A stretch of DNA of 54,948 nucleotides from Proteus faecis (GTDB lineage Bacteria > Pseudomonadota > Gammaproteobacteria > Enterobacterales > Enterobacteriaceae). Shown piece after piece: positions 6,001 through 30,964 of this stretch. The stretch spans positions 1 through 54,948 of the forward strand of contig NZ_PENZ01000030.1 of assembly GCF_003144395.1 (NCBI RefSeq), given 5' to 3'. The position numbers were made by a program, and so were the translations under genes. The notes beneath the pieces were generated by a model that had not been told where the DNA came from, did not search any database, and saw only the letters and a program-made list of their open reading frames with translations. The first letter of the stretch is position 1, and each line of letters starts with the position of its first letter.

Positions 6001-8985
6001 GAATAACAGCGCATTCTGGCTGAGTATCTGACCTTCTTGCTGATTACTCAGTTGTTCTCCCGTCAAGGCTAAGGTGCCACCACTTTGCAACAAACCTGCG
6101 TTATTATTGAAAGAGTGACCTTTCCATTGCAATGCGTTACCGGCACTGACTTTACCTTGGCTGTTCTTAAGATCATTTTGTGTGTTTAAGGTGAGCTGGC
6201 TACCTGATAACAACTGGCCCTGAGTGTTATCGATGCTTTGTGTACTGAGGTTCGCCTGTTGTCCTGCCTGAATCGTACCTTGCAGGTTAGCAATATCCCT
6301 TTGAGTATCGAGGGTTAATTGATTGCCCGCTTCTAATAAGCCAGACTGATTATTCACATCACCTTGACTGATGAGGTTGAGATTTTGGGTTGCAATCACT
6401 TTACCGGTTTGGTTATCCAGTTGGGCGGTATGGATATTAACGTTTTGACTGCTGACTTCGCCTTTAGCATTATCAATTTGTGTCGTGGTTGCAATATCGA
6501 GTTTTTGGCCAGATAGCACTTGCCCATCACGATTATCCAGTGTGTTGGTGGTGATAGCTGTTTGCTTACCACCTTGCAATAAACCCGCTTGGTTGGAGAG
6601 TTGCTGTCCGACAGACGTGGTTAGAATCTCATTGGCAATCACTTTTCCTTTCGTGTTATCTAAAGCATTTTTTACTTTGATATCAACAGTGTTTTCACCA
6701 ACAATCTGTCCTTGCTGATTTTTAATATTGTCAGCAGTCAGTACAATATCTTTGCCGGAAAGTGCGCCATTTTGGTTATCAAGATCGGTGACCGTATTAA
6801 GAACAAGTTGCTTACCGGACAATATGTTGCCACTTTGGTTATCAACACGTTGCGCCCCAACAATAAGCTGAATGTCACTTTGCATTGTACCTTGTTGGTT
6901 ATTAACCACATCTTGCGCTGTTAAAGTTAATTTATCCCCCGCCCCTATAAACCCGCCGGTGTTATTCACCCGCTGGCGAGCGACAACATCAAGAGTGGTT
7001 TGGCTAATCAGTCTACCCAGCGAATTATTGAGATTGCCAGTATTGACGGTAACTTTCTGGCTATTAATGATACCAGATTGATTATTCAGTAATTTGTCTG
7101 CCTGCAAATCGACTGAATTTCCTGCGACAAGGTTACCGGTAGTATTATCAATCTGTTGTTTAGCTTCTAAGCTTAAGTGGGTTTGGCTTTTAATCGTGCC
7201 TGATTGGTTATCAATTGCGTTTGCGGTAAGGGTTAAGTTCCCATTTGCCCCGATTTCGCCTTGTGGGTTAGTAAGAGTATTTTTGACCAGCCAATCTTGC
7301 TGAGTATTGCTTAACGCAACTAATCGGCCAGCTTGATTGTTCAGTGAATCAGCACTGAATTTGAGGCGATTGGCTTCAATCACACCACCCTGGTTATTCA
7401 GCTGCCCTGAAAGCGCAAATTGACTCTCGTTTGCCCCAGTTTGTACCCACGCACCTTTCTGATTAAACAGGTTATTTGCATTGACCTGCCACTGTTCTGC
7501 TTTGACTTGCACTTGTCCGGCGTGAATATCTCGTGCACTGTGGAATTTGACGTGATTAGCATCAATCTTGTCTTGGATGAGGGCAATGTCCCCTTGTTTG
7601 GCGGTGAGTGCCAAAGCAGAGGCGGCGATTTGTGTCTGGCTTAAATCCAGAGATTGACCTGTCGCGGTAACATTTTTTTTACTTAATAGAGCACCTCGGG
7701 TACCAATTGTACCATCACTGTTTAGAGCAATATCAGCATTATTGATAATGTTGCTTTTATTATCACTGCCTGCGAGCAGGTTACCCTGACTGAGAATATC
7801 GCCTTTCGCATTGATTTTAACATCTTGCAGAGCAGCCAGCGTGCCCGTGTTGCTCACCGAGCCTGTTTGGCTTTCAAGGTTTAAGGTACCGCCACTGTGC
7901 AATTTACCTTGGTGCCCAATGGTGTCTTTGGCTATCAAAGTAATATCACTGCCTGCTTGGGTGGTGGCTTGTTGTGATTCGCTTCCCCAAATTAGCTTAC
8001 CGTTGCTATTAACTGTCAATGTCTTATCCGATTGGATGTGCCCGCCTTGGTTACGCACGCCCACGCCTTTTTCGGTACCCACCATTTGGATATAACCGCT
8101 GTACATGCCCCCCATTTGCCCCATGTCGATGGCAAATTTAGGTTGCGCGGTTTGGCTCTCTATCCGAGTGGCTTTATTTTGCGTATCAACTTTGTTTTTA
8201 CCCGCAACAACGGCGATTTTTTCTTTTGCCCACACGCCTGAGTTAATTTCAACTGCACGGGCAAGCAGGTCAACATATTGAGTATCGTGACGACTGTCAG
8301 CATTCAGTCCTCCACCTTCAACGCGAATAATTCCGCGCTCAACCTGATATCCGGCAAGACTGCCATCCGGATTAAATTGGGGTTTACCAGTAGTGAGGGT
8401 CATGCGACCTGCGTTGATGGTGCCACAACCATTACAAATAATTCCCGAGGGGTTAGCAACAATCACTTGTGCTTTACCACCGGCGACTTCAAGAAAACCT
8501 TTGATCTGGCTCGGGTTATTGCTGTTAACTTCATTGAGAATGATACGAGCAGGCGCTTTGTTTGGATCAAGGTTCGGATTACCCTGGATCACGCCTGCAA
8601 TTTGTGTTGAAGTCATCACCGCGGAGTTATTGAGCACAGCACCACGATTATCGACATCAAATTGTTTATATTGGTTATGGGAAATTCCCGAATCATTCGG
8701 TGCTACAATATTGACTTGTGGAATACCATTTTGCGTATTGATCACCTCAGGGCGCTGGTTTGGAAGTGCATTATTATCGGCAATAATGTTGCCCGCCATG
8801 GCAGAGCTTCCCCACAAGGCCAGCCACAGCAGCAACGAAGTACGGCGCAAAGTGACCCACAAGCGACAGCCATTTGCGCCTCGCGTTTGGCCTGAGTCAG
8901 TGCTACAGCTTTTAGCTAGTTCCGATACGACACGTAATTCCCCATGAGTGCGACTGAAAATTAAACGATAACAATGCTTATTCAT
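1..8985 (-). CDS. Giant CdiA/filamentous-haemagglutinin-family two-partner secretion exoprotein (TpsA), 3' end outside window
   Basis: The minus-strand frame is open from an ATG at 8985 to base 1, giving 2995 codons with no stop; the C-terminus is missing. Start is supported by AAGGAAT about 9 nt upstream. Residues 1-24 form an extended signal peptide region (MNKHCYRLIFSRTHGEL...), with signal peptidase cleavage likely after AMA near residue 64. The TPS secretion domain follows, with NPNL at 136-139 and NPSGI at 178-182. About residues 435-1450 are degenerate 21-22-residue haemagglutinin repeats. Residues about 1500-2200 are non-repetitive, as in the receptor-binding/YP part of CdiA, and about 2200-2995 resemble the second haemagglutinin repeat block, ending near a FAGKGGFDVSV segment. 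The TpsB partner lies 79 nt upstream. Family knowledge: cell-surface filament exported by TpsB; may deliver a C-terminal toxin. Whether it is a contact-dependent inhibitor, adhesin or haemolysin cannot be decided without the missing C-terminus. Confidence 0.93.
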   Translation of the reverse strand, partial: MNKHCYRLIFSRTHGELRVVSELAKSCSTDSGQTRGANGCRLWVTLRRTSLLLWLALWGSSAMAGNIIADNNALPNQRPEVINTQNGIPQVNIVAPNDSGISHNQYKQFDVDNRGAVLNNSAVMTSTQIAGVIQGNPNLDPNKAPARIILNEVNSNNPSQIKGFLEVAGGKAQVIVANPSGIICNGCGTINAGRMTLTTGKPQFNPDGSLAGYQVERGIIRVEGGGLNADSRHDTQYVDLLARAVEINSGVWAKEKIAVVAGKNKVDTQNKATRIESQTAQPKFAIDMGQMGGMYSGYIQMVGTEKGVGVRNQGGHIQSDKTLTVNSNGKLIWGSESQQATTQAGSDITLIAKDTIGHQGKLHSGGTLNLESQTGSVSNTGTLAALQDVKINAKGDILSQGNLLAGSDNKSNIINNADIALNSDGTIGTRGALLSKKNVTATGQSLDLSQTQIAASALALTAKQGDIALIQDKIDANHVKFHSARDIHAGQVQVKAEQWQVNANNLFNQKGAWVQTGANESQFALSGQLNNQGGVIEANRLKFSADSLNNQAGRLVALSNTQQDWLVKNTLTNPQGEIGANGNLTLTANAIDNQSGTIKSQTHLSLEAKQQIDNTTGNLVAGNSVDLQADKLLNNQSGIINSQKVTVNTGNLNNSLGRLISQTTLDVVARQRVNNTGGFIGAGDKLTLTAQDVVNNQQGTMQSDIQLIVGAQRVDNQSGNILSGKQLVLNTVTDLDNQNGALSGKDIVLTADNIKNQQGQIVGENTVDIKVKNALDNTKGKVIANEILTTSVGQQLSNQAGLLQGGKQTAITTNTLDNRDGQVLSGQKLDIATTTQIDNAKGEVSSQNVNIHTAQLDNQTGKVIATQNLNLISQGDVNNQSGLLEAGNQLTLDTQRDIANLQGTIQAGQQANLSTQSIDNTQGQLLSGSQLTLNTQNDLKNSQGKVSAGNALQWKGHSFNNNAGLLQSGGTLALTGEQLSNQQEGQILSQNALLFTLNGDFNNQTGIFTSQGDTVINANLINNVKGVLNALGRLTVRVVQQLDNRDGRIFSQQAQTLQAQNIFNQQGWIGSLDCWKATAQMFNNQNGEIQSQKEIELTANTLGNLQGKLQAGASASLLIANEINNTEGKISAGQNLVATGQSVRNRQGQLLSGGTLQLSVSNADNSQSGLLYSQKQLLLSIENAFNNTLGKLQSGENLILTSKVLDNTSGKIESQQTLSLTGTERIDNASGVIRSNQNQQLETKTFNNREGTVSSLDQLVLNATQLDNSQGTVISQQAGSYNIAQINNTQGKIHGGDTLTLTTSDIQNQQGQLVSTKALKLIALTLDNRHNGILSSQGSLRALLNTLDNRENGLVHGSKETTLTIKNIENTTGRLQSNESLTFSGVNTLNNQSGQVLANGNIAINTDEASTSAKLVLLNQQGTLQSGSALAINTQSINNQNGTIQSQRALSLTAAQDYMHRAGDTLTSNQSVTLNIAGALTNLTDWLLPGDFTFSGLNFINQGSLVSKNLVVTTGQLNNLNRLEADKMTLNVDTLNNSATLMGDDIRVKANTLDNQGKMAVIAAAKHIDLHTENTLTNRDQALIYSGDTLTLTSDNLIENNASFIEADGAVSITARLLNNLRKGLEIQRDVEKSDYRWHRYSYNWRSYGSGVNTDKTTIDPTTQKLTFKNDIAATTNPYGTLLNIDASNKRAQVRVKNKDGQLTDVWVNYLALTPDSDGGYTMTFYETRGWRQNTPPTPYHNTVWREHDIGFIEQWDPALHLDLADIPYVTDYNNLRERSVEGTISRDKLISEGTGARILSGGNMVLTITGSLLNDASTITSAGDLHKRGNGRFENKGYSVNEHRREHIVDHYDRDTRHWYPTFEHDETIALKTIDGIISGNGNVVINGQSITNTTVNSAQIGEIEAALNAVKAERAEFARNPLAFHIEGTGKPILNADFSASDKSDLTYSEAISPSGRPLLPSELALTKKQHISNVATFIPDNGLFRQNLTPDSPYLVVTDKRFTDRDKFISSDYLLARVGYSPADVHKRLGDGFYEQRLVREQVLKLTGRASLREEDAMAQYQYLMNNGIKVAEDFRLRPGVELTPAQIAALQQDIVWLVSETVETANGPQTVWVPKVYLANTTLRLLSSGAVISGKNLQLSAESVNNAGQLLADKGLEVNAEQFLHHGGDIGAERINIQADSITLSTNLQDALRQASLSATDISLNGHDIQLQGAKLAALNDISVTARDNLSITSARSTHSGDIRVISGAMGNRTRDGLEKAGEHRLAHISGEWQRSQGSELNAGGNLTLKAGQNITLQGSQAKAGGQLAADAGHNLNILSDTTTTKTHLEAGSRTSSVSNIREEERLLLSTLSGDKGVSLNAGNDFLAEGAQVDSREGNVAVSAKEVSITAATQDISAQDYEKTRFSRKSNGSRIDETSSHTVTGSTFSGQKGVDITARADDITVTGSAIHSEKGAVNLNAQNNVVLNTATEETQSYLETHRSKKGFLSSRSEHTIQNDETTRERESLLSGEKVTVNAGNNLTVTGSSVVAEQDVTLNAGNNVDITAATETDSHYFLEEKKKSGLFSGGGLGFTFGKQSTRHEVDEKGTTQSQSVSTIGSTQGDVNITAGNKLHVGGADLIAQKDLNLTGDSVQIDPGYDERTRTETFETKQSGLTLALSGTVGGALNTAVSTAQQARKESDGRLSALQNTKAVLSGVQAQQAYELDGLKTEAANDYNTANNLKPSNDGYQKGETNTVGVSVSYGSQSSKSETYTNSRQSQGSTLNAGQNLSITAMGKNKDSNPDSGNITVAGSELKAGKDLSLSATQDINLVSAQNTEQTTGKNSSQGSNVGIGIGVGSGGYGITVSAGVNVGKGHEKGNGHTHTETTLDAGHKLTLNSGQDTTLKGAQVSGEQVTVNVGRDLTLQSEQDSDRYDAKQQEVSVGGGYTIGGTPNINISASKDKIHSNYDSVKEQTGIFAGKGGFDVSVKEHTQLDGAVMASTADKDKNRL
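4630..7680 (-). repeat. Degenerate tandem haemagglutinin (FHA-1 type) repeat array inside the exoprotein gene
   Basis: The coding strand carries roughly 45 imperfect repeats of 63-66 nt. Each encodes a unit of the form LDNQ-x-G-x-I-x-S-x(3)-L-x-L-x-A-x(3)-L-N. Family knowledge: such units stack into a right-handed beta-helix that makes the extended fibre. The units are too diverged at DNA level to be a young tandem duplication, and the boundaries given are approximate. Confidence 0.8.
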
Positions 8986-9064
8986 AATGGAATTCCTTCA
9001 AGAAACAGTACAAACATGGGTAAAACTGAAAATGTCTACTGGCTATCAAATCAATAAAATGCGA

Positions 9065-10780
9065 TTAAATTTCAAGGTTGAGGCTAAAACCAGCCGTCGC
9101 CCCTGATGTATCGAATTTTTTCGGCTTATATAACGGCACGCCGACAAACAGGTCGTAGCTTAAACACGATGAAATTGAGCCACGAAGCCCCAATGCGGTA
9201 CCCGCGAGTTGACGCCCCACAAGGTATTGAGTACTTTGGCCTTCAACACGCCCGTAATCAGCGGCTAAATACAGCTCTTGTCCTTTAGCAAAAACATTCC
9301 AAACCAGTTCGTTGCGCCATAACAGACCTTTTTCACCCGACAGCACTTGCTCACCGTCAAAACCACGAACGGTATAGCGACCACCGATAGACATGCGTTC
9401 CTGAGGGGTTAAAGCATGTTGAGTCCATTGTCCTCGTAGTGCGGTATTCCAGCGCCAGGGTTGTTCACCTAATGTGAATGGTTGATTGAAACTGATATCG
9501 CCAAGGAAAATACCCACGCGAGCACTGCCGCTGTGAGTGTCTTCTTCTGGTGCACGGCGTGCGCCATAGGCACCTGTTCCGCGACGCCAGTTAACATTGG
9601 CATCAAGCGTCGCGTTGCCTAAAAAGCTACGCTGGTTAACACCCACTTCCCATCCCGCGGTACGTCGGCGTTGCTGCTCAATATCAATGTCATTAACTGC
9701 ATTACTGGCTGTTTTTCGGTAGGTGCGTAAGTTAAGGGTGGTTTTATGAATTTGATTGCGAAACAGTAACCGTGACACCGTAAGTTGTGCGGTATCGCTC
9801 TTGCCACTATAACGTAGCACTTCGTTCGCATTAGGAATATTTTGGTGATAATTATATTTATTGTAATTAACGTTAAAGCCCCAATTGCCTACAGGGATAA
9901 AATAGTTCAGGGTGTAAGAGCGGTTACCAAAAGGGCCTTTATCAAATAAGTCTTTGCTAATATTGGCATAAAACATATCATTTTGAGCAAATGGCGCATC
10001 TATGGCTAAAGTAGTAGAACCTAAATAGCGCCCGGTACTTTTTGAACCACTGTCATCAAGACCTAAACTAAGCCGTACAGGACGTTTTTCCTGCCAGCTG
10101 ACCACTAAGTCACTGGTACCATCAATCGGACCGGGCTCAATACGAATATCCGCTGTTACATTAGGTACGCGTTTAAAGTTTTCCAGCCCTTGTTCAATAT
10201 CACGCAAATTCAAAATATTACCGGACGAGGCAGGGATAGCATTCCACAAACGTCCACGCCATGAAGTGCCGTCATTAAAACGAATGGCATTAATTCGTCC
10301 TGGCTGAAGCGTGAGAACCAACTCCCCCCGGGTTAAATCCTGCTCTTGTGCCATTACGCGAGTGGTCACATAACCTTTTTCTAAAATGGCATTTTGTACC
10401 TTATTAAGAACCAGCAGAACTCCCTGGCTACCAAGGCATCGGCCTTTAGCCTCGTTAACAGCATTCAATGCCCAATGAAAATTCTCAGCTTCCTCACCTA
10501 CAAGTTGAATGGAAGAAATAGTAAAGCAAGGGTGTTCATTTTGCGGGTAATCCGGTAGTGATAAATCTGGCTGCTGGATATGCATGTCCACAGCGGGCAT
10601 GTTTTGTTTCTGTAATAAGCGCTCTCTTTCCTGCTGGCGTTGCTGTTCTCTGGCATCAACAGATAATGCGTGTTGCTCCGGTTGATTTAATGGCTCGGCT
10701 AACAACGGCATCGCAACAAAACATCCACCTAACAACCACCACTGATACTGCTTTTTATACTTAAAAAGTTTGTTTGTCAT
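9065..10780 (-). CDS. Two-partner secretion outer-membrane transporter, TpsB/CdiB/ShlB family
   Basis: This 571-residue Omp85-superfamily protein would secrete the exoprotein encoded immediately downstream. It has a signal peptide (hydrophobic WWLLGGCFVAMPLLA, residues about 14-28), an N-terminal helix and linker, POTRA-like segments at about 80-235, and a C-terminal 16-strand barrel region. The conserved VRGF motif of the lid loop is visible as GGRYTVRGFDGE, and the protein ends in alternating barrel residues (AGFSLNLEI). Length fits ShlB/HpmB/CdiB (about 550-590). It is transcribed in the same direction as the exoprotein gene with a 79-nt gap, the usual B-then-A order of CDI and haemolysin loci. 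The ribosome site is weak (GGTTGGTTT before ATG). Confidence 0.93.
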   Translation of the reverse strand: MTNKLFKYKKQYQWWLLGGCFVAMPLLAEPLNQPEQHALSVDAREQQRQQERERLLQKQNMPAVDMHIQQPDLSLPDYPQNEHPCFTISSIQLVGEEAENFHWALNAVNEAKGRCLGSQGVLLVLNKVQNAILEKGYVTTRVMAQEQDLTRGELVLTLQPGRINAIRFNDGTSWRGRLWNAIPASSGNILNLRDIEQGLENFKRVPNVTADIRIEPGPIDGTSDLVVSWQEKRPVRLSLGLDDSGSKSTGRYLGSTTLAIDAPFAQNDMFYANISKDLFDKGPFGNRSYTLNYFIPVGNWGFNVNYNKYNYHQNIPNANEVLRYSGKSDTAQLTVSRLLFRNQIHKTTLNLRTYRKTASNAVNDIDIEQQRRRTAGWEVGVNQRSFLGNATLDANVNWRRGTGAYGARRAPEEDTHSGSARVGIFLGDISFNQPFTLGEQPWRWNTALRGQWTQHALTPQERMSIGGRYTVRGFDGEQVLSGEKGLLWRNELVWNVFAKGQELYLAADYGRVEGQSTQYLVGRQLAGTALGLRGSISSCLSYDLFVGVPLYKPKKFDTSGATAGFSLNLEI

Positions 10781-11421: not shown

Positions 11422-12309
11422 CTATCGCTTTGTTGCAAAAACACATCCAGCAATGATAATCACCGCGCCTATTGCCTGAATAACATCAACTTTTTCCCCT
11501 AAAGTGAAGTATCCAAAAACTCCTGTTGATACGGGGATTAATAATTGTGTAACATTGAAAATAGTTACCCCCTGTGTTTTTACAATATAAAATGCCATAA
11601 GCATACCTGTGAACATTCCATATATACCAGCAAGAACTAATAATATTAATAGATCTTTAGATGTTACTGATAATTCAGAGATAACACCTGTTTTTATAGC
11701 TAATAATAAAAACATCAATCCTGAAATAGTTGCTGTTGACGCACTAATTACAATTGCGGGAAGGTATTGCGCTACTATTTTAACAATGACATTTTGTATC
11801 GATTGAATACAAATAGCGATGGTTAAAAAGATAAATCCTATATAATTAAATGAGCTAGAACTTAAAGAGTGGTCATTAAAAATAAAAAGAAACGATCCTA
11901 ATATTGCAATTAATGCACCTGTTATAAATTTATAGTTAAATGCTCTTTCTCGTTCATCAATAAAAAACAAACTGGCAACGAGAATACCTAGTGGCATTGC
12001 CAATATACTAAAAACACTCCCTGATAAGGCTGATGTATTCTTTATCCCATTAATGAAAAAGAACATATTGCATGTCATAAATATGGAAAGAACAAAAAGT
12101 AGTAGCGCTGTTTTAATATTTATCTTTTTTAAGTGGTTTTTGTACTTTAATAAACAAAAAATACAAAAAAGAACTCCCCCAGAGATAAATCTGACCGCAT
12201 TATTATTTAATGTATCAAAGTTTAGGCTCATATATCTCATGATAGGAAAACCTAGTCCCATCAGAATTACATACATACAACGGACTAAAAAATAGTTTTG
12301 ATTGTTCAT
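11422..12309 (-). CDS. EamA/DMT-superfamily inner-membrane transporter
   Basis: The protein is 295 residues from the ATG at 12309, preceded by a very strong ribosome site (AAAGGAGGAAGG); a longer frame reaching 12372 lacks such a site and adds a non-hydrophobic N-terminus. About ten hydrophobic segments in two similar halves are visible, with the duplicated EamA pattern (first-half GLGFPIMRYMSL and second-half GTGMLMAFYIVKTQGV type segments). Family knowledge: drug/metabolite transporters moving small metabolites or exporting them; substrate cannot be read from sequence. It lies 180 nt downstream of nanS on the same strand, so it may belong to the sialic acid island, perhaps handling a sugar or by-product, but no direct link is visible. 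Confidence 0.85.
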   Translation of the reverse strand: MNNQNYFLVRCMYVILMGLGFPIMRYMSLNFDTLNNNAVRFISGGVLFCIFCLLKYKNHLKKINIKTALLLFVLSIFMTCNMFFFINGIKNTSALSGSVFSILAMPLGILVASLFFIDERERAFNYKFITGALIAILGSFLFIFNDHSLSSSSFNYIGFIFLTIAICIQSIQNVIVKIVAQYLPAIVISASTATISGLMFLLLAIKTGVISELSVTSKDLLILLVLAGIYGMFTGMLMAFYIVKTQGVTIFNVTQLLIPVSTGVFGYFTLGEKVDVIQAIGAVIIIAGCVFATKR

Positions 12310-12489
12310 CCTTCCTCCTTTATCCTGTATTAATAAAATAAAGTCGCAGGCACGCTGTGCACAGAAAAGCAAGCGCTCTCAATTAATCTTTTATTTGCCA
12401 AAAAACTAAAAAATCACAGCCAACTAATAATTATATCAAATGAAGTTTCCATTTTTTAATCCCCCCTCCCCTCCCATGCTATCAATATA

Positions 12490-13506
12490 TTAATTAACTA
12501 ATAATAATCTTTTTGCTATAAAATTAGAAAAAGATGTAGAAACAATCCCTCTACGTGCCTGTGAATTAAAATGGGAATTTCTTAAGTCCGTGGTCCAATT
12601 ACTTTTATCTCTCCATGAAGAACCTAAATAACCTTTATATGTTCCATCAGGATCTTCGGAAGGTTCATTAGTTAAACCTCTTTCATTATTTTCTTGAAAT
12701 TGTAAAAAATAAATTTCTTTATCTTCATGACAGCGATAATTACCATATACAAAGTCATACTCTTTTTTATATTTCTCTTTCCAATACCATGTAGTATCAC
12801 CACATAGCCAAGGTACTTTATCAATATTATTATCAATACATTGAGCTGAATAATCACTCAAATCATTTCTAAATCTTTCCACCATAGCATTAAATAATTT
12901 AGGTTGTTCATAATAATGCTCCGATGCTAAATCAAATTCGCCTTGCATCCAGCAAACCGCTATTAACTTATTTAATGGATTGTAATCAAGAGCAAATTTT
13001 ACTCTAGTTAATAAATCAAAATATAAAGGTGTATCAATCCCCCAACGTAATGAATCAGGACTGGCTCCTGTAGCTAAATTAAAAGAACCGTTCAAACCAA
13101 TAGTAAAAGCGGCTCCGCCCCTACAACAAGGAACAAGCAAAATACCTGCGTTGTCAGGTATATATGGAAGAATTTTTTTAGCTATATGCAATCCCTGACC
13201 GACACAACCATATTCACCATTTGTTAAGTTAGCTTTAGGATGATGAAATAAGCTCATATCTTGCACATCATGAAGACAATGATCGGCAGGAATAATTTCA
13301 TTATACTGGCAGGGTTTTCCTCCAGGAGTGATTGTACTTCTTCTAGCCAATTGTTTAATTCTTGGATTCGGGCAGTCAAGCGTTTGCGGGAGTGGAAGCC
13401 CCTCCCCATAAGCCATACCATTAGATTGTCCTGCCAGAGGTAGCACATACCAGAATTCAACTTTAGCGCCCCCATTGTTTTTTCCTTCTAAATCAGAGCT
13501 ATACAT
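12490..13506 (-). CDS. nanS: Sialate O-acetylesterase (NanS, SGNH/SASA family)
   Basis: This 338-residue protein closely matches the E. coli NanS family (326 residues). Family knowledge: NanS removes 9-O-acetyl groups from sialic acids such as Neu5,9Ac2 so the sugar can be catabolised. Visible landmarks are LAGQSNGMAYGEGLPLP with candidate nucleophile Ser28, PRIKQLAR, the ILLVPCCRGGAAFTIG block, WMQGEFDL, CGDTTWYWKE and a C-terminal SHFNSQARRGI with candidate catalytic His312. No signal peptide is apparent. It is transcribed divergently from nanR across a 104-nt gap, so both could share NanR control. The first about 17 residues are unusual relative to E. coli and an internal start is not excluded. 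Confidence 0.92.
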   Translation of the reverse strand: MYSSDLEGKNNGGAKVEFWYVLPLAGQSNGMAYGEGLPLPQTLDCPNPRIKQLARRSTITPGGKPCQYNEIIPADHCLHDVQDMSLFHHPKANLTNGEYGCVGQGLHIAKKILPYIPDNAGILLVPCCRGGAAFTIGLNGSFNLATGASPDSLRWGIDTPLYFDLLTRVKFALDYNPLNKLIAVCWMQGEFDLASEHYYEQPKLFNAMVERFRNDLSDYSAQCIDNNIDKVPWLCGDTTWYWKEKYKKEYDFVYGNYRCHEDKEIYFLQFQENNERGLTNEPSEDPDGTYKGYLGSSWRDKSNWTTDLRNSHFNSQARRGIVSTSFSNFIAKRLLLVN

Positions 13507-13531
13507 ACTCTTATATCCTCACTTCATTATT

Positions 13532-13560
13532 TTGTATAATCTTTAATGTTTTCTTATAAT
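13532..13560 (+). promoter_or_regulatory. Candidate sigma-70 promoter for nanR
   Basis: TTGTAT at 13532-13537 and TATAAT at 13555-13560 are separated by 17 nt in the nanS-nanR gap. A start about 7 nt further gives a leader of some 45 nt ending in the GGAG ribosome site before nanR. No clear copy of the nanA palindrome is seen here. Confidence 0.5.
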
Positions 13561-13610
13561 GTGTCACCATTCTCTTTACTATTTTTGGGCGTAAAAATAC
13601 GGAGTAACAG

Positions 13611-14312
13611 ATGTTGACCACTAAAAGAAAACCACTGGTAACAAAAAAGTTATCTGAAATTGTTGCTGATGAGTTAGAAAGTATGATCCGACGTGATGAG
13701 ATCAAAGAAGGAGAATATCTTCCTTCCGAACGTGAACTTATGGATTTCTTTGGCGTTGGTCGACCATCAATCAGAGAAGCATTATCTGTATTAAGGCACA
13801 AAGGTCTTATAAAATATAATAAGGGTGAAAAAGCCAGTGTATGTCGACCTTCTGCGGAAATGATTATCAACAGTTTATCTGGCATAGTTACCGATTTTCT
13901 CTCTACCTCAGAAGGTGTTAGTGACTTTGAAAGACTACGCATATTTTTTGAAACTCATCTAGTCAGATATGCAGCTAAACATGCAACCGAAAAAGATTTA
14001 GAAAAACTAGAGAAAATACTAGACATTCATCATAATTCATTAAGAACACCTGATGCCTATGCACAATATGATATTGAATTTCATAAAATATTAGCCGATA
14101 TTCCACAAAATAAGATCCTCAAAACACTTCACTCTGCACTATCGGAATGGCTTATCTCGGCTAAGCCTCTTGAAAAAAATAAAATGACCTATGAGAATAA
14201 TAAAAAAACACATACTCAACACATTGAAATCTTTCAAGCTATAGCCAATCACGATGCAGAAAAAGCAGAATTATTGATGGAAAATCATTTAAAACATCGT
14301 ATCAAATTATGA
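13611..14312 (+). CDS. nanR: NanR-type GntR/FadR-family transcriptional repressor of sialic acid genes
   Basis: This 233-residue protein has an N-terminal winged helix-turn-helix (about residues 12-78; LPSERELMDFFGVGRPSIREALSVLRHKGLI) and a C-terminal all-helical FCD ligand-binding domain (about 90-228), the FadR-subfamily architecture. E. coli NanR is 263 residues; this copy lacks most of the N-terminal extension. Family knowledge: NanR binds operators in nan promoters and is released by N-acetylneuraminate. Context is decisive, since it sits between nanS and the other sialic acid genes and is the only regulator in the island. The start has GGAGTAACAG just upstream. It ends 24 nt from the convergent esterase gene. 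A palindrome before nanA is the best candidate target. Confidence 0.88.
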   Translation: MLTTKRKPLVTKKLSEIVADELESMIRRDEIKEGEYLPSERELMDFFGVGRPSIREALSVLRHKGLIKYNKGEKASVCRPSAEMIINSLSGIVTDFLSTSEGVSDFERLRIFFETHLVRYAAKHATEKDLEKLEKILDIHHNSLRTPDAYAQYDIEFHKILADIPQNKILKTLHSALSEWLISAKPLEKNKMTYENNKKTHTQHIEIFQAIANHDAEKAELLMENHLKHRIKL

Positions 14313-14336
14313 TCCAATAATATTAATGCCTTATAC

Positions 14337-15269
14337 TCAATATATTATTTTTGACTCAATCCAATTTATAAATAGTTCAGGCCATCTTTTTACTGGTAAA
14401 TCAGAAGTCCATTGAATACCAAAACCATGGCCCCCCTTCTCATAAATATGCATCTCTGTTGGTACATTATATTTTATAAGGGAGTCGAACATTAATAAGC
14501 TATTTTCGACAGGCACTAAAGGGTCATCGCAACAATGCAATAGAAAAACGGGTGGTAGTTTTGAATTAACATTACATTCTGCGCTATAATTTTTTATATT
14601 AATATCATCAGTATCATGACTAATTAATTTATCTTTTGAGCCTTTATGTGTGATTGAATCACTCATTGATATAACAGGATATATTAATCCGGCAAAGTTA
14701 GGCATAATTAAGTTAATATCAATTTTTTCATTAGATAAAATACAACTATCAGCATTATATGCTTGGGTAATAAGCATTGCCGCTACATGACCTCCAGCAG
14801 AAAACCCCATAATTCCAATGCGATCTTTTTCAATTTTCCATTTAGATGCATTTTTTCTTATATACATCATTGCCAAAATAGCATCATTAAATGGGCGATT
14901 AATATCGTCAGAAAATAAAGGTGACGGTAATCGATATGTCAGAACAAATATTGTGTAACCCTTAGATAAGAAAAAAGGCGCTAATGCAGTACCTTCTTTA
15001 TCAAACATAACTGCCTGATATCCCCCACCGGGTATCACTAAAATACCACATCCATTAGAATGTTCTGGAGTAAAAATAGTTAATTGTGGATGAGATATAT
15101 TTGTAACGACTCTATCAAGAGAATATTCACCATTGTGTTCAGGATCTTGATAAACAAGTTCACCTAGAGGTTCATTAAATAGAACATTTGATGTAATTAA
15201 ATCTATTCTTGTCGATTTTTCAAATAAATCCACCATCATTTCATTTAGTTTTTCATTTATGATTTCCAT
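14337..15269 (-). CDS. Alpha/beta-hydrolase, acetylesterase-like, in the sialic acid island (copy 1)
   Basis: This 310-residue protein belongs to the alpha/beta-hydrolase (BD-FAE/acetyl esterase-like) group. It shows the oxyanion segment IPGGGY (79-84), the nucleophile elbow GFSAGG with Ser157, an acid in CCDDPLVP (Asp249) and the catalytic histidine in GGHGFG (His281). There is no signal peptide, so it is probably cytoplasmic. It is a clear paralogue of the protein at 17290-18138, with the same order of motifs including LIYPVISM and PPVFLLH. The setting among nan genes suggests it removes O-acetyl groups from sialic acids, perhaps at positions NanS does not handle; that is inference. It follows the terminator behind nanM and so may have its own promoter. 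Confidence 0.85.
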   Translation of the reverse strand: MEIINEKLNEMMVDLFEKSTRIDLITSNVLFNEPLGELVYQDPEHNGEYSLDRVVTNISHPQLTIFTPEHSNGCGILVIPGGGYQAVMFDKEGTALAPFFLSKGYTIFVLTYRLPSPLFSDDINRPFNDAILAMMYIRKNASKWKIEKDRIGIMGFSAGGHVAAMLITQAYNADSCILSNEKIDINLIMPNFAGLIYPVISMSDSITHKGSKDKLISHDTDDINIKNYSAECNVNSKLPPVFLLHCCDDPLVPVENSLLMFDSLIKYNVPTEMHIYEKGGHGFGIQWTSDLPVKRWPELFINWIESKIIY

Positions 15270-15366
15270 ATACGCCTCGATACCATAATAATAAAAGTTT
15301 TAATAAATTAAATTCCAGTAGAGTGATTAATGTTTAATAAAACATCTATATTTAATTTAAAATAAA

Positions 15367-15391
15367 AGCCTATATTTTTATAATATAGGCT
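15367..15391 (-). terminator. Hairpin terminator after nanM
   Basis: AGCCTATATT and AATATAGGCT form a perfect 10-bp stem with a 5-nt loop, followed on the minus strand by TTTTATTTT. It lies 11 nt after the nanM stop and would end most transcription of nanA-nanT-hydrolase-nanC-nanM. Confidence 0.65.
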
Positions 15392-15401
15392 ATTTATTAT
15401 T

Positions 15402-16505
15402 CTATTTAATGACTTTTACGTCATCACCATTTTGTTTCAAGAAAAATATATCGGATATTGCCTCTCCGTTACCTTTTTCACCACCAATAATAAGCATTCC
15501 ATCTTTCCACGGAAGTGATACACCGTATGCAATTCCTTCCGGCAAAGAAGCAACTCTGATCCATTTATCATTTCTCAGTTGATAAATATCCTTGGAATAA
15601 TGTTTTATTAAACCTTTATGAGACCAGTATAACCCTTTGTTATAATTATCAATCGCGCCAGGGAAATAAGCCCCTCCAGCGAGAGTTAAATTACCATTAA
15701 TAAAAGCACCATATGCTCCAGATACACCATCAGGTACTGCAACAGAAGGAAGTTTTGACCACTCAATAGTTCTATCTTTTATATTACCAGCCCACACAGA
15801 TGTTGAACGAAGACCTGGCTTACGCTCGCCTGCAAGAAGAAAAATGCGATTATTGTCGGTCACAACAGAAGAACCTGCCGTGCCAGCAAATGGTAATATT
15901 CCAAAATTCATCCAAAGATTATTATCAGGACTAAATGAAATAATCTGCTTGTTTAAAAAATAATCTTCCTCAGGTTTACTAAAGTAATTTTCATTTATTT
16001 TATCTTTTAGCGAAGTATTATTATTTGCATAATTTATATCATGAAATAATCCATTAAATATATTAGCATTCACTCCACCAAAGGATATTATTTGATCTTT
16101 ATAGGCAAAAGAAATATGTCCAGCAAGACTCACAGGAGGACGGGTTAATAATTTCTCCCACTTATCCTTTTTGATATCATAAACATAAACATATTCTTGT
16201 ACTTTTGTCAGGCCCGAATTATCTTTACCAATTCCACCTAAAATATAAATTTTATTATTTAAAGTAATCGCAGTTGCCTGTTCTCTTGGAACATCAGGGA
16301 AAGATGCAATTTTGACCCACTGATTATTTTCTGAATTGGCATCTATCTTATACCAATTCTGCCCCATACTTCCTAACCCAACATAAATATTATTATTTAC
16401 AGCAACACCAACTCCATACTTCAATGGTTCAGGAAGATTAGGTAGAACAGAAGCATACGCACTTACATTACATATTAAAACCAATAGCAAAGTTAATATT
16501 CTCAT
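15402..16505 (-). CDS. nanM: N-acetylneuraminate epimerase (mutarotase) NanM, kelch-repeat periplasmic protein
   Basis: This 367-residue protein has the length of E. coli NanM (368). A signal peptide is visible (MRILTLLLVLICNVSAYA), so it is periplasmic. The mature part contains kelch repeats forming a beta-propeller, seen as recurring units such as NNIYVGLGSMGQNWYKID, NKIYILGGIGKD and MLIIGGEKGNGEAISDIF. Family knowledge: NanM speeds conversion of alpha- to beta-N-acetylneuraminate, helping uptake of sialic acid released by sialidases. It lies 16 nt downstream of the porin gene and ahead of a terminator, making it the last gene of the probable nanA operon. Assignment is strong from length, repeats and context. 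Confidence 0.92.
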   Translation of the reverse strand: MRILTLLLVLICNVSAYASVLPNLPEPLKYGVGVAVNNNIYVGLGSMGQNWYKIDANSENNQWVKIASFPDVPREQATAITLNNKIYILGGIGKDNSGLTKVQEYVYVYDIKKDKWEKLLTRPPVSLAGHISFAYKDQIISFGGVNANIFNGLFHDINYANNNTSLKDKINENYFSKPEEDYFLNKQIISFSPDNNLWMNFGILPFAGTAGSSVVTDNNRIFLLAGERKPGLRSTSVWAGNIKDRTIEWSKLPSVAVPDGVSGAYGAFINGNLTLAGGAYFPGAIDNYNKGLYWSHKGLIKHYSKDIYQLRNDKWIRVASLPEGIAYGVSLPWKDGMLIIGGEKGNGEAISDIFFLKQNGDDVKVIK

Positions 16506-16521
16506 ATATTATCCTTACTTA

Positions 16522-17229
16522 TTAAAAGTTTATAAGAACACCAATACGATAACTATTTTCGTGTAAATTATCCCGACCAAGATAGGCACCTTGCTTATCA
16601 AGATAGTCATATTCAACATATGGTGTAATAGTTGGTGAGAATTTATATTGAACAACAAATGCATTTTCTGTTGCTGTTTTTTTATGATTCCCGTATCTGA
16701 AGTTATTCGCTTTTGTATATGCTGTTGTCTGCCAAGCAAATAACCACGAATCGTTTATCCTGTATGTGAAATATCCATCAATTTGGTATTGATTATTTCT
16801 TGAGGAATTTCCATCAAGATCTGTTTGTCGAAACGCTTTCCAATCATAACGAAGACGAACACCGAGATTAATATCAGGATTGACTTGATAAGATAATTTA
16901 AGATAAGGATTGTATTGGCTACCTGCAGACATCCATTGAGTTTGGATCCCTGGGATTAAGCTCCACTTATCATTAAGTTTATATGTTTTATTTAAATCTA
17001 TTTTGCTGTAATTCAGAGCAAGCAATTCATTACTATTGTCATGAATTTTATTCCAACTAGTAGATTCAAAACTCGCCCACCAACCATTGCTCCATCCATG
17101 ACTAACTTGTACCAATGATTCATAAGCATGACTAGCGCTTCGATATCCTCCTCTTAAGTTTAGCGTTAAAGCCTGCGAACAAAAAGGAATGCTAAGAAGC
17201 GCTAATAATAGCGTTGATTTATATTTCAT
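16522..17229 (-). CDS. nanC: KdgM/NanC-family oligogalacturonate/sialic acid-specific outer-membrane porin
   Basis: This 235-residue protein has a signal peptide (MKYKSTLLLALLSIPFCSQA) and then a short beta-barrel: TLNLRGGYRSASHAYESLVQVSHGW, alternating aromatic strands, and a terminal strand SYRIGVLINF ending in Phe as in outer-membrane porins. Length matches NanC and KdgM (about 215-240, 12 strands). Family knowledge: these porins pass acidic sugars, and NanC passes N-acetylneuraminate. The gene lies between the permease/hydrolase genes and nanM in the same direction, so sialic acid or its O-acetylated forms is the likely substrate. KdgM-like oligogalacturonate specificity is the alternative, but no pectin gene is nearby. 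Confidence 0.88.
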   Translation of the reverse strand: MKYKSTLLLALLSIPFCSQALTLNLRGGYRSASHAYESLVQVSHGWSNGWWASFESTSWNKIHDNSNELLALNYSKIDLNKTYKLNDKWSLIPGIQTQWMSAGSQYNPYLKLSYQVNPDINLGVRLRYDWKAFRQTDLDGNSSRNNQYQIDGYFTYRINDSWLFAWQTTAYTKANNFRYGNHKKTATENAFVVQYKFSPTITPYVEYDYLDKQGAYLGRDNLHENSYRIGVLINF

Positions 17230-17289
17230 AATTACCCTTATATTTAAAATAAGATTTTTATCATATGAGATATTTCATACAGCATTGTT

Positions 17290-18138
17290 TTAAAATTTTT
17301 TAGCTTCAAACCAATCTAAGAATAAATATTTCCATTTTTCAGAAGGTGTTTTTTTTAATTCAGAAATACCAAAACCATGCCCTCCTTTTTCAAATAAGTG
17401 TAAATCAACAGATAATTTCTTTTTATATAACTCCATAAAGAATCGATACGAGTGGTTAAATGAAACATCCGTATCATCTATTGAGTGAATAATAAAAACT
17501 GGAGGCATCTCCTCGGGAATGTTTAATTCCGCACTATATATATTTTCTTTTGATGAATTACCTATAAGATTGAATTTACACCCCAAATGTGCAATATCTT
17601 TTTGCATAGATATCACCGGGTAAACCAATGCTAAATAATCTGGTTTTATATTTATATCCACCTTATTTAAATAACACTGAATAACCAAATTACTTGCTAT
17701 ATGCCCACCCGCTGAAAACCCCATGACTCCTACACTATTCAACTTAATATTTTGTTTTTCCTCCCATCGTTTTATAAATTGCAACGAATTAAATGCATCA
17801 ATAAAAGGAAAAGGAAAAGAATTTATTTTAAAATCGGACATTCGATAAGATAAAATAAATGATGTATATCCTTTTGATGCAAACCATTTAGCAACAGATA
17901 ATCCTTCTATACCATATACAACTCTACGATATCCTCCACCTGGAATAATGATAATACCGTGTTTATTACTTACATATGGCTGAACAACTGTTACAATAGG
18001 TTTTTTAATATTGTATAAAATAGCATTTTCACAGAAATGTTCCGTTGACTCGCTAATTGATAACAATTTATCTTTTTCTAAAAAATAATGTTTTATTGTA
18101 TATTCTTTGAATTTAAGCAGTATATTTCCTTTCATCAT
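17290..18138 (-). CDS. Alpha/beta-hydrolase, acetylesterase-like, in the sialic acid operon (copy 2)
   Basis: This 282-residue hydrolase is a paralogue of the one at 14337-15269. The visible catalytic set is IPGGGYRRVVYG (about 65-76), GFSAGGH with Ser142, SIDDTDVSF with Asp222 and GGHGFG with His254. No signal peptide is present. It lies 9 nt downstream of nanT and about 60 nt upstream of the porin gene, so it is embedded in the nan operon. Family knowledge: relatives deacetylate carbohydrates. I infer a sialic acid O-acetylesterase role; the acyl position and substrate are unknown. Relative to copy 1 it is shorter at the N-terminus and lacks part of the loop after the nucleophile elbow, so the two may differ in specificity. 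Confidence 0.86.
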   Translation of the reverse strand: MMKGNILLKFKEYTIKHYFLEKDKLLSISESTEHFCENAILYNIKKPIVTVVQPYVSNKHGIIIIPGGGYRRVVYGIEGLSVAKWFASKGYTSFILSYRMSDFKINSFPFPFIDAFNSLQFIKRWEEKQNIKLNSVGVMGFSAGGHIASNLVIQCYLNKVDINIKPDYLALVYPVISMQKDIAHLGCKFNLIGNSSKENIYSAELNIPEEMPPVFIIHSIDDTDVSFNHSYRFFMELYKKKLSVDLHLFEKGGHGFGISELKKTPSEKWKYLFLDWFEAKKF

Positions 18139-18147
18139 AGACCTGCT

Positions 18148-19620
18148 TTATATATCTATTTTTTGTTTATTCTTTTTAGCTCCATAAAAAGGTTTTCCAT
18201 CGACTGTATCGAACTCTAAAGCAACCTCTGGATTAATCCAGCGTTGAACTCTTGATGGCATATCAAATCCAATAAGAATCAATACAACAAATGTTAAAAT
18301 AAACGCAAGAGAACACATTGCGGTTCCTAAACTAAATTGTGATGCGAGCATTGCGCCTAATATAGGTGCACAAGCCCCACCCAAAGAACCGACATTATAG
18401 ATAAACCCTAAACTTGCAGCTCGTTGTTCCACTTCAAAATAGCCACTAATAATTTTAGGTACCAGAGCACCGATACCCTGACCAAATACCTGTTGAGTGA
18501 ATATAAGCAGACCGAGTAACCATACATATTCCCTATCTACTAAAAAAACTGGAATTATGACAAGTTGCCCAATAAGAAGAGAAATCACATATGCTTTACG
18601 GGTTCCCCACCAATCCCCCATAAATCCGCCAATACAACTTCCAACAGCAGAACCAAAGCCAGCTAATGTAAATATCAACGCAACAGTTTCAGGTGAATAC
18701 TGCATATCAACCTTCAACCACGTTGGCAGAAACGCCTGTAGTGGCCATCCATAAAGGAAGCAAAACATCACGACTAACATTAGCATGACACCTGTTGGCC
18801 AACGTTTTCCCATACTCTGGCAGATAAAGCTAATAAACACCCCAGCACAGCACAATGCCATTATCGTAATTAATAACGCGTTTGCAGTTACACCTGAAAA
18901 ACAGACATAAAGACAGGTAAATGCAACACCAGACAATAAGATGTTTTTATACTTATTTTTTTCTTTGTATAAAATATCAATCATTGTTCTTATAGGTTTA
19001 TTTTCAGCCTGACGTTTTTTCCAGTCATCTGATTCTGGTAAATTTTTTCTGAGATAAAATGCAAAGAAAATTGGTATAATTCCAACAAAGAAAAGAGAGC
19101 GCCATCCCCATTCAGGAACAATTAAGCTATAAACCTGAGCAGCAAGCCCTCCTCCGATTGAAAACCCCGATATCAAAAAACCACTTGCTTTATTTCTTAA
19201 CCTGACTGGCCAACTTTCAATAACATATGTGACACTAGAACCATACTCTCCAGCCATTCCAAGCCCAATAACAATACGGGCAATAAACATAACTGTATAG
19301 CCAGGTGCTAAACCGCAAGCTAAAGTACCAAGAGAGAAAAGGACAATACTTAAAACCATTGCCATTTTCCGCCCCCACTTATCAGAAAGCGCCCCTATAA
19401 CCAGCCCACCAAACCATCTAGATATAAATGCAGCAGAGATTAAACTGGCAGCTTCAACTGTTGTCAGTCCAAACTCATGTTGAACCTCTGTAAGAACCAA
19501 AGAAATTAATACAAAATCAAAGCCATCAAGTAAATATCCAGTCCATGCTGCTGCAAATATTTTCCATTGTCGAGGCGAGAGATGTTTATACCAAACCTTT
19601 TTTTGCATATCAGATTCCAT
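18148..19620 (-). CDS. nanT: Sialic acid transporter NanT (MFS, inner membrane)
   Basis: From the ATG at 19620 the protein is 490 residues; GGGG about 6 nt upstream supports this start over one 51 nt further out. E. coli NanT is 496. It has the long MFS arrangement with an extra pair of central membrane segments. Recognisable blocks are [65 protein letters not shown] and [10 protein letters not shown], all characteristic of NanT. Family knowledge: proton-linked symport of N-acetylneuraminate. The gene follows nanA after a 132-nt gap containing a hairpin, and is followed closely by a hydrolase gene. High confidence. Confidence 0.95.
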
Positions 19621-19699
19621 ATATGACCCCATATAAATATATAAATGAATAAGGAAGTATATTAAGTTCAAAATATTATTTATTAATCACCTTTAGAGT

Positions 19700-19737
19700 A
19701 GGCTCATTCCATTTAACAAAAACAATAAAATGAGCCT
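19700..19737 (-). terminator. Intercistronic hairpin between nanA and nanT
   Basis: AGGCTCATT and AATGAGCCT pair perfectly across a 20-nt loop in the 132-nt gap. There is no good U-run after it, so it is more likely an mRNA-stability element or weak attenuator that lowers nanT relative to nanA than a full terminator. Confidence 0.4.
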
Positions 19738-19752
19738 TCATAATAATAAGGA

Positions 19753-20652
19753 TTAATAGCTATTTTTTTCTTCCAATAATTTTCTAGCCAAGATATTTAA
19801 TTCAGGAAGATATTTTTCATCAACAGGAGAGAATGGCGATCTGCATACAGGATAATTAATTACCCCCATATATTTTAATAAAACTTTAATACCAGCAAGC
19901 ACACCTGTTTTAATTAATGTATCAATAACTCTATTACAATCACTTTGGATTTTTTGAGCACCTAATACATCACCAGACATTAATAAAGAATATATTTTCT
20001 TATAACGCCATCCCATAATATTATAAGTACTACCAATCCCGCCATTCGCACCCGCAATTATTCCAGATGCAAATATTTCATCGAAACCATTATATAGGGT
20101 CAAACTAGGATGGGCTCTTCTGATTTGTTCCATTTGAAATAAATCCCCAGATGTTTGTTTTAATGCACATACACCTGGTAATTCAATCAACATATTCATT
20201 TGTTCTAAGGATAATCGAACACCACTTAATACTGGTATGTTATAAACTACCATAGGTAATCCATCAGCAGCATTAATAATAGATTTATAGTGCTCACAGA
20301 TTTCTTGAAATGAAAATGGATAATAAAAAGGAGTCACCGCAGAGACAGCATCAAAGCCATATTTTTTAGCTGCTTTTGCTAATTCCTGACTTTCACGAGA
20401 ACTAATTCCTCCAACATGTGCAATTAAAGCTAATTTTCCTTTTGCTTCTTCTGCAACAACCTCAAAAACAGCTTCTCTTTCTTTAGCATTTTGCAAAAAT
20501 GCTTCCCCTGTAGAACCACCTACATATAAACCATGCATATTTTGCTCAATATTAAAGCGTACTAGGCGCCTGAGACTATCCACATCAACATTTTGTTCAC
20601 TATCAAATGGAGTTGGTAATGCTGAAATAACGCCATTGAGTACTGATGTCAT
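19753..20652 (-). CDS. nanA: N-acetylneuraminate lyase NanA
   Basis: From the ATG at 20652 (GGAGATAAGT directly upstream) the protein is 299 residues, as in E. coli NanA (297). It is a DapA-type TIM barrel. Key residues sit at the classical numbers: GGSTGE at 45-50, Tyr137 in VVYNIPV and the Schiff-base Lys165 in CALKQTSGD. Reaction: N-acetylneuraminate to N-acetylmannosamine and pyruvate in the cytoplasm. It is the first gene of the minus-strand nan operon. A near-perfect palindrome 54 nt upstream and a CRP-like site further out suggest induction by sialic acid through NanR and catabolite control. A longer frame to 20703 has no ribosome site and adds residues absent from the family. Confidence 0.96.
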
Positions 20653-20705: not shown

Positions 20706-20726
20706 TTGGTATACCTAGTACACCAA
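20706..20726. promoter_or_regulatory. Palindrome before nanA, candidate NanR operator
   Basis: Arms TTGGTATAC and GTACACCAA flank CTA; they match at 8 of 9 positions, and one further A/T pair extends the palindrome at each end. It lies 54-74 nt before the nanA ATG and contains GGTATA, the core of the E. coli NanR site, although E. coli uses direct repeats. It is the only such palindrome I noticed in the island. Confidence 0.5.
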
Positions 20727-25916: not shown

Positions 25917-26264
25917 TTAAAATATCGCTATTACTTCCTATATTACTTGATAATAAATTATCAAGTAATATATTAAACACTTTTAGTTATAAGAATATTC
26001 CATAAAAGAATAGAAAGTCTTATTTAAAATAATAATAACAATAAAAAAAATCGCCACAGAAAAAGTAACTTTAGATTTATTTACATCATTAAATTATTCT
26101 GACTTAAAACACCCCTGACTTCACAATTATTTAAAATCATATTTTACCCCTCTAGATTAATATCAATAAATGTCTATCTTTATTATTTCTGGCACTAGCC
26201 AGATAATAAAACTATTTTCAATGTGAAAATAAACTTAAATTAAACTTGATATCCGGAGGATATT
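25917..26264. other. Intergenic region between the two protease genes
   Basis: About 350 AT-rich bases. The first part holds a 14-bp hairpin (listed separately); the remainder presumably carries the zapA promoter, but no convincing hexamers stand out. The zapA ribosome site (CGGAGGATATT) is at the right end. Confidence 0.5.
25940..25971 (+). terminator. Hairpin after the first protease gene
   Basis: ATATTACTTGATAA pairs perfectly with TTATCAAGTAATAT across a 4-nt loop, 23 nt after the stop codon. The stem is AT-rich and the following U-run poor, so termination is probably partial; it separates the first protease from zapA transcription. Confidence 0.45.
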
Positions 26265-27719: not shown

Positions 27720-27730
27720 TTTATAATTGA

Positions 27731-27764
27731 GTAGGAGAAAGACATTTCTCCTACCTTTCTTTTA
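27731..27764 (+). terminator. Attenuator-like terminator between zapA and zapB
   Basis: GTAGGAGAAA pairs perfectly with TTTCTCCTAC across GACA, followed by CTTTCTTTT. It starts 12 nt after the zapA stop. Partial readthrough would give abundant protease and less exporter. Confidence 0.7.
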
Positions 27765-29620: not shown

Positions 29621-29636
29621 TATTGAGAAGACTATT

Positions 29637-30962: not shown

Positions 30963-30964
30963 TA

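What the first reader, a model, noticed from the sequence alone, without database searches (positions are those of the whole stretch)
11422..20652. Sialic acid island with three separate esterases
One compact nan locus carries NanS plus two paralogous alpha/beta-hydrolases with intact Ser-Asp-His sets. E. coli has only NanS. None of the three shows a signal peptide. Three deacetylases of two folds suggest specialisation for heavily or variably O-acetylated sialic acids (4-O, 7-O, 9-O), such as those of gut mucin, or lactylated forms. The placement of one hydrolase within the operon and the other behind a terminator suggests separate control.
Basis: partly seen in the sequence, partly recalled or inferred. 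Interest (0 to 1): 0.72.

Follow-up and report, generated by a model that had tools for sequence, protein, structure and literature searches.

The report
Sialic-acid island with paired extra esterases
A gut-type bacterium carries an acquired sialic-acid gene island that, besides the known esterase NanS, holds a pair of different esterases also found on a few E. coli plasmids, which may strip acyl groups from host sugars that NanS cannot handle.

Summary
The window has a nan island: NanA, NanT, hydrolase HydB, NanC porin, NanM, a terminator, hydrolase HydA, NanR, NanS, EamA transporter. HydA and HydB are 41% identical alpha/beta-hydrolases with Ser-Asp-His and no room for a signal peptide. "E. 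coli has only NanS" is wrong: 20 of 5,426 complete E. coli genomes (19 on plasmids) carry a similar island with both hydrolases. At megablast sensitivity neither hydrolase was found in E. coli away from nan genes, and window and plasmid hydrolases group together in a tree (SH-aLRT 93). The wider PaeX/AxeA1-like family is found mainly outside nan loci; one distant Bacteroidota locus again puts such an esterase beside NanM-like and sialidase-like proteins. HydA and NanS are absent from 19 other genomes of the genus; one of these has 1.26 kb where the island lies. KdgM-linked PaeX-like relatives start with signal-peptide-like stretches; HydA and HydB do not, though neither does one relative outside nan loci. 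Most likely the pair removes O-acyl groups that NanS leaves from sialic acids (or from ManNAc); C4 is a candidate, since NanS is reported not to act there. No substrate was shown.

The parts
11422..12309 (-). EamA-family transporter (ATG start taken at 12309), outermost gene of the island; no counterpart in the plasmid islands
   Evidence: PF00892 1.8e-25; no tblastn match in L001-L003 at E 1e-3
12490..13506 (-). NanS, SGNH/SASA sialate O-acetylesterase
   Evidence: PF03629 36.9 bits over cut-off 24.8; 3pt5 NanS 9.3e-126
13611..14312 (+). NanR, GntR/FCD repressor, divergent from NanS and convergent with HydA
   Evidence: NF003011 267 bits over 260; 6on4 NanR 1.9e-71
14337..15269 (-). HydA: alpha/beta-hydrolase, PaeX/AxeA1-like, Ser157-Asp249-His281, no signal peptide seen
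   Evidence: AlphaFold2 mean pLDDT 88.7
15367..15391 (-). terminator-like hairpin between NanM and HydA
   Evidence: 10 pairs, 3 of them G-C, with T-rich tail; reported on both strands
15402..16505 (-). NanM, N-acetylneuraminate epimerase (mutarotase), with hydrophobic leader
   Evidence: NF010730 446.3 bits over 416; leader
16522..17229 (-). NanC, sialic-acid outer-membrane porin (KdgM family)
   Evidence: 2wjq NanC 8.3e-87; PF06178
17290..18138 (-). HydB: second alpha/beta-hydrolase, between NanT and NanC, no signal peptide seen
   Evidence: AlphaFold2 mean pLDDT 88.7
18148..19620 (-). NanT, MFS sialate:H+ symporter (ATG start taken at 19620)
   Evidence: NF003024 817.6 bits over 604
19753..20652 (-). 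NanA, N-acetylneuraminate lyase (ATG start taken at 20652)
   Evidence: TIGR00683 449.2 bits over 382
20706..20726 (.). 21-nt palindrome upstream of nanA, candidate NanR operator
   Evidence: 29.6 bits; next best place in the window 12.3, best in 5 mononucleotide shuffles 13.7 (this site was one of three used to build the matrix, so its own score is circular)

Best explanation
This is a horizontally acquired accessory sialic-acid-processing island. It adds an outer-membrane porin (NanC), a mutarotase (NanM), a transporter (NanT), a lyase (NanA) and three esterases to a genome that already has, on another contig, nanK, nanE, yhcH, an SSS transporter and a NanA-like lyase. Proposed flow: O-acylated sialic acids enter through NanC, NanM sets the anomer, NanT imports; NanS and the HydA/HydB pair remove O-acyl groups, with HydA/HydB taking forms that NanS leaves (4-O-acetyl sialate, other acyl groups, or O-acetylated ManNAc released by NanA), so that NanA, NanK and NanE can finish the pathway. 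Shown: gene content, intact catalytic residues, lack of leaders, linkage of both hydrolases to nan genes in two genera, grouping of the pair in a tree, purifying selection between two plasmid variants. Inferred: substrate, division of labour, compartment, regulation by NanR.
For: Similar island in E. coli: HydA in 20 of 5,426 genomes, the same 20 records holding the nanS-nanM stretch; HydB in 21 of 5,426, the extra one on a truncated island. Tree of 122 sequences: the 8 island hydrolases (window plus three plasmids, two of them identical) form one group (SH-aLRT 93, below the tool's mark of 95), HydA orthologues 98, HydB orthologues 99. dN/dS between two plasmid variants 0.155 (HydA) and 0.219 (HydB). 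No leader on HydA or HydB in window or plasmids, but signal-peptide-like starts in 4 of 4 KdgM-linked relatives looked at, one of which passes the PaeX cut-off (678.7 over 550). Independent co-location in Niabella: family esterase, NANM-family protein, a protein with a BNR-neuraminidase N-terminal domain, two DHDPS-family proteins. NanK and NanE elsewhere in the genome over their cut-offs, with YhcH and an SSS transporter. HydA and NanS in 1 of 20 genus genomes, and a genus genome with 1.26 kb in place of the island. A review passage says NanS acts on C7/C8/C9 acetyls but not C4 (PMC8319020, passages read).
Against: No substrate was tested. The nearest named relatives act on pectin or xylan acetyl esters, and the relatives found lie mainly outside nan loci. 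0 of 38 other NanM loci in the order sample carry such a hydrolase (12 of the 38 stretches were cut short). All orthologous linkage rests on one island type in two genera, so it is few independent events. A relative outside nan loci without KdgM, L119, also lacks a leader, so a leaderless form is not special to the nan pair. A review places NanS in the periplasm (PMC3658417, passages read) although the window NanS shows no leader, so absence of a leader does not settle location.
Confidence: 0.45

Rival explanations
1. HydA and HydB remove the same C7/C8/C9 O-acetyl groups as NanS and only add dose, a different compartment or different kinetics.
For: NanS is beside them, and many copies of sialate esterases are known in E. 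coli prophages (PMC3658417, Table 3 passage).
Against: They are kept as two diverged copies of another Pfam family next to an intact NanS; NanS is reported broad at C7-C9 already (PMC8319020, passages read).
Confidence: 0.22
2. HydA and HydB hydrolyse other esters of sialic acid or of its products: lactyl or methyl esters, lactones, or only O-acetyl groups on ManNAc after the NanA step.
For: No leader, so a cytoplasmic substrate fits; an unidentified methyl esterase is postulated for E. coli, though in the periplasm (PMC3658417, passage read); a 9-O-acetyl would become a 6-O-acetyl on ManNAc and block NanK (chemistry, own knowledge).
Against: No direct evidence; the nearest named families are acetylesterases.
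Confidence: 0.15
3. They are carbohydrate acetylesterases of the PaeX/AxeA1 kind that hitch-hike on the island and serve plant-glycan or other sugars.
Against: Below the PaeX and AxeA1 cut-offs (279.5 and 181.2 of 550; 167.2 and 119 of 700); no leader; the porin is NanC, not KdgM; the E. coli orthologues found are all in nan islands, one truncated.
Confidence: 0.13

Closest known systems
E. coli NanR regulon (nanATEK-yhcH, nanCMS)
   Same: NanC, NanM, NanS, NanA, NanT and NanR present and clearly homologous
   Different: adds HydA and HydB; no nanE or nanK in the island; NanC, NanM and NanS are not one operon; NanR lies between HydA and NanS (K-12 order from PMC3658417 passages)
Plasmid nan island of E. 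coli (e.g. NZ_CP063519, NZ_CP010197)
   Same: HydA-NanR-NanS block and NanA-NanT-HydB-NanC-NanM block both present, 54-89% protein identity
   Different: blocks in the other order; the plasmid has NanK between NanA and NanT; the window has EamA; no palindrome found before window HydA
PaeX pectin acetylesterase, beside KdgM porin
   Same: same alpha/beta-hydrolase family; esterase next to a KdgM-family porin in 5 of 122 loci searched
   Different: the four KdgM-linked relatives looked at have signal-peptide-like starts and one was shown to pass the PaeX cut-off; HydA and HydB do neither
NanS / NanS-p sialate O-acetylesterases
   Same: proposed reaction type; one true NanS is present
   Different: SASA family; HydA and HydB match BD-FAE and related families instead

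Membership tests
Sialic-acid (nan) catabolic locus | NanA, NanT, NanR, NanM over curated cut-offs | tested here: met
   TIGR00683 449.2/382, NF003024 817.6/604, NF003011 267/260, NF010730 446.3/416
Sialic-acid (nan) catabolic locus | NanE and NanK in the same cluster | tested here: not met
   NanE family found once in the genome, on contig C45, beside NanK 468.7 bits over 450
NanS sialate O-acetylesterase (12490-13506) | SASA domain and close similarity to solved NanS | tested here: met
NanS sialate O-acetylesterase (12490-13506) | activity on Neu5,9Ac2 | not testable with these tools
   needs an assay
BD-FAE (PF20434) for HydA and HydB | score over the gathering cut-off | tested here: met
   77.7 and 53.2 bits over 26.8
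PaeX pectin acetylesterase for HydA and HydB | NCBIfam equivalog NF041902, cut-off 550 bits | tested here: not met
   279.5 and 181.2 bits; KdgM-linked L129 scores 678.7 and leaderless L119 453.2
PaeX pectin acetylesterase for HydA and HydB | exported protein with signal peptide | tested here: not met
   no hydrophobic leader and only 10 or 3 codons upstream; that PaeX is periplasmic is recalled, not from a call
AxeA1 acetylxylan esterase for HydA and HydB | NCBIfam equivalog NF042968, cut-off 700 bits | tested here: not met
   167.2 and 119 bits
Sialate O-acetylesterase (function) for HydA and HydB | hydrolysis of an O-acyl sialic acid | not testable with these tools
   only genomic linkage
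Sialate O-acetylesterase (function) for HydA and HydB | complete catalytic triad | tested here: met
   Ser157, Asp249, His281 in 58 of 58 rows; which Asp is catalytic is judged by conservation only

The most novel reading that the evidence does not exclude
HydA and HydB found a new fold class of cytoplasmic sialate (perhaps 4-O) or O-acetyl-ManNAc esterases that work after import, spread on plasmids and genomic islands, and extend the usable sialic acids beyond the C7-C9 range of NanS.
Probability: 0.33. Interest if true: 0.7.

Novelty: new variant of a known kind. Interest (0 to 1): 0.5.

Why it matters
NanS is reported not to act on 4-O-acetyl sialic acid (PMC8319020 passages), and the bacterial sialate O-acetylesterases that I know of (recalled) are of the SGNH/SASA kind. 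A linked, selected pair of alpha/beta-hydrolases of another family inside a mobile nan island gives two concrete genes to test for the missing activity. It would also mean that the range of host sialic acids that a strain can use travels on plasmids. The same pair is on E. coli plasmids from mouse, human and pig sources, including the probiotic candidate CEC15, so the test is practical.

Tried and rejected
Considered and rejected: a missed signal peptide on the three esterases (too few codons upstream). Degenerate paralogues (triads intact, dN/dS well below 1). PaeX or AxeA1 membership (below cut-offs). Wider occurrence: HydA in 1 of 20 genus genomes; in the order sample 9 of 394 genomes match HydA at E 1e-70, best other identity 50%; HydB in 1 of 369 genomes of the class sample at E 1e-45; plasmid HydB matches 72 of 392 family genomes at E 1e-40, 54% in the own genome and at most 43% in the others. 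The Vibrio tritonius plasmid relative (40%) lies beside KdgR, KduD and a GH88 protein, not nan genes. A NanR-like palindrome before window HydA or between NanS and NanR was sought and not found; TGGTATA alone is no more frequent in the window than chance (14 against a mean of 10.7). A third palindrome-like place before NanC in the plasmids scores 13.8, about the best of the shuffles (13.7), and was dropped. G+C of the island (0.32-0.35) is like that of the window to its right, so it gives no sign of foreign origin.

Literature: the listings showed no paper that I recognised as describing plasmid nan islands with these hydrolases. Several listings were cut (10 of 26, 12 of 14, 10 of 33), and most subscription papers are not held. 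The CEC15 genome paper (PMC10680302, passages only) mentions sialic acid once, about the comparison strain EcN.

Limits: the palindrome matrix was built from the sites it then finds, so those scores are circular; the independent fact is the likeness of the nanA and hydA upstream sites in the plasmids. In one search the window-plasmid NanT row used a wrong frame and the NanC row gave no dS; both are ignored, and dS in all window-plasmid rows is near saturation. The tree was the quick method; the placing of the island group in the wider family is weakly supported. A2 holds 56 of the 125 ORFs, chosen by hand, plus the two window proteins; the tree used 122 rows after five partial or double-length ORFs were dropped. 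38 loci were fetched around hits, not all of its listed places. Of the 80 genome-contig loci (best 80 of a capped list of 589) only L074 and L040 were annotated by Pfam. PLSDB gene tables are incomplete: NanS is not listed in L001 and L003, where tblastn finds it at 68% with an open frame over the part examined. A5 was made and not used.
Full report
What is there. The window carries, on the minus strand, NanA (ATG taken at 20652), NanT, HydB, NanC, NanM, then a terminator-like hairpin at 15367-15391, then HydA. NanR on the plus strand is convergent with HydA and divergent from NanS, and an EamA transporter follows NanS. NanT and HydB are 9 bp apart, NanC and NanM 16 bp, so HydB sits inside an operon-like run. 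NanA, NanT, NanR and NanM exceed NCBIfam cut-offs, the porin is NanC rather than KdgM and the regulator matches solved NanR. The island has no nanE or nanK. These are on contig C45 and exceed their cut-offs, beside YhcH (N-acetylneuraminate anomerase, over its cut-off), an SSS transporter and a lyase that matches NanA but falls below the NanA cut-offs (150.1 of 281; 117 of 382). The island therefore widens sialic-acid use and depends on the C45 cluster for the later steps.

Linkage. In E. coli, HydA-like DNA is in 20 of 5,426 complete genomes, 19 on plasmids and one on a chromosome. The same 20 records hold at least 80% of the nanS-to-nanM stretch. HydB is in 21 of 5,426; the extra record has only the nanT-end to nanM part. 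These are megablast counts. By the source shown, 10 of the 20 are mouse or rodent, 7 human, 1 pig and 2 other or unstated; nine of the mouse ones bear one strain series, so this is no host preference. Protein identities of window to plasmids are 57% HydA, 54-56% HydB, 57-58% NanM, 68% NanS, 72-73% NanA, 75-76% NanR, 79-80% NanC, 88-89% NanT. A tree of 122 sequences joins the eight island hydrolases in one group (SH-aLRT 93, short of the 95 mark), with HydA and HydB orthologue groups at 98 and 99. One duplication before the window and plasmid lines parted is the simplest reading. Between two plasmid variants dN/dS is 0.155 for HydA and 0.219 for HydB, against 0.05-0.139 for five other island genes: constrained, but less so.

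Results against a simple sialate-esterase family. The relatives found are mainly outside nan loci. In 38 loci around family-sample relatives, apart from the hydrolase itself only weak transporter matches (NanT 21-27% in seven loci) and one weak lyase match (NanA 32%) were seen. Of 80 genome-contig loci, seven had any match to a nan query at E 1e-8, all at 37% or less. Of these I annotated two. L074 (Niabella ginsengisoli) has a BD-FAE esterase before a NANM-family mutarotase, two DHDPS-family proteins and a protein with the N-terminal domain of BNR neuraminidases, a sialic-acid-like cluster; L040 has an SSF transporter and a fucose-isomerase protein instead. Of 38 other NanM loci in the order sample none has such a hydrolase and one has NanS; 12 of the 38 stretches were cut short.

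Compartment. HydA and HydB have no hydrophobic leader and only 10 and 3 extra codons of open frame; their plasmid orthologues have 7 and 5. Four KdgM-linked relatives (L129, L130, L133, L134) start with signal-peptide-like stretches, and L129 passes the PaeX cut-off. An esterase next to a KdgM porin occurs in 5 of 122 loci searched. But L119, outside nan loci and not KdgM-linked, also lacks a leader, so this is not a mark of the nan pair alone. The pair looks cytoplasmic, which points to action after NanT, or even on acylated ManNAc after NanA. A caution is that a review places NanS in the periplasm (PMC3658417, passages read) although the NanS here shows no leader.

Mobility. Among 20 genus genomes only this one matches HydA and NanS at E 1e-20. 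The gene to the right, allantoate-amidohydrolase-like, is in all 20, several of them single-contig assemblies, so the site is chromosomal. In G158 that gene and a two-partner-secretion transporter gene (74% identical to the one left of the island) lie so that the matching blocks are 1.26 kb apart, against 10.6 kb here, with no nan match in the 12-kb stretch. The five genus stretches compared match the window from 21.10-21.20 kb rightwards; only G158 also matches on the left, and two of them have short weak NanK-like matches.

Control. A 21-nt palindrome lies before nanA at 20706-20726; a similar one lies before nanA and another just before HydA in the plasmids. This suggests that NanR controls both blocks in plasmids; nothing of the kind was seen before window HydA.

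Conclusion. What is new is the pair of alpha/beta-hydrolases tied to a mobile nan island, not the count of three. Removal of O-acyl groups that NanS leaves is the best-supported role, at moderate confidence; the exact substrate is open.

Noticed in passing
window 1-10780: Two-partner-secretion pair: an exoprotein of at least 2,995 aa with TPS, ESPR and haemagglutinin-repeat domains running off the window, and its ShlB/FhaC-type transporter; G+C 0.44-0.49 in windows 1-10000 against 0.32-0.35 in the nan island.
   Followed up: partly
window 24117-32314: Two serralysin-type metalloprotease ORFs with RTX repeats followed by a type I secretion set (ABC, HlyD, outer-membrane protein).
   Followed up: no
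window 38280-54772: Two fimbrial clusters in tandem, each with an MrpH-type adhesin and an usher.
   Followed up: partly
L074 9791-15844: Niabella ginsengisoli cluster with BD-FAE esterase, NANM-family protein, protein with a BNR-neuraminidase N-terminal domain and two DHDPS-family proteins: a second, distant link of this esterase family to sialic acid.
   Followed up: partly
L129, L130, L133, L134, L148: KdgM porin next to a PaeX-like esterase in five enterobacterial loci, a parallel to HydB beside NanC; in L148 the esterase match is split over two frames.
   Followed up: partly
NZ_CP075698.1 102486-105543: An E. coli plasmid record keeps only the nanT-end, HydB, NanC, NanM part of the island.
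   Followed up: no
L008 4463-5353 (G000:C45): The second lyase, beside nanK and nanE, is below the NanA cut-offs, while relatives at 72-74% sit beside nanE and nanK in L209-L211 and L213; its exact substrate is open.
   Followed up: no
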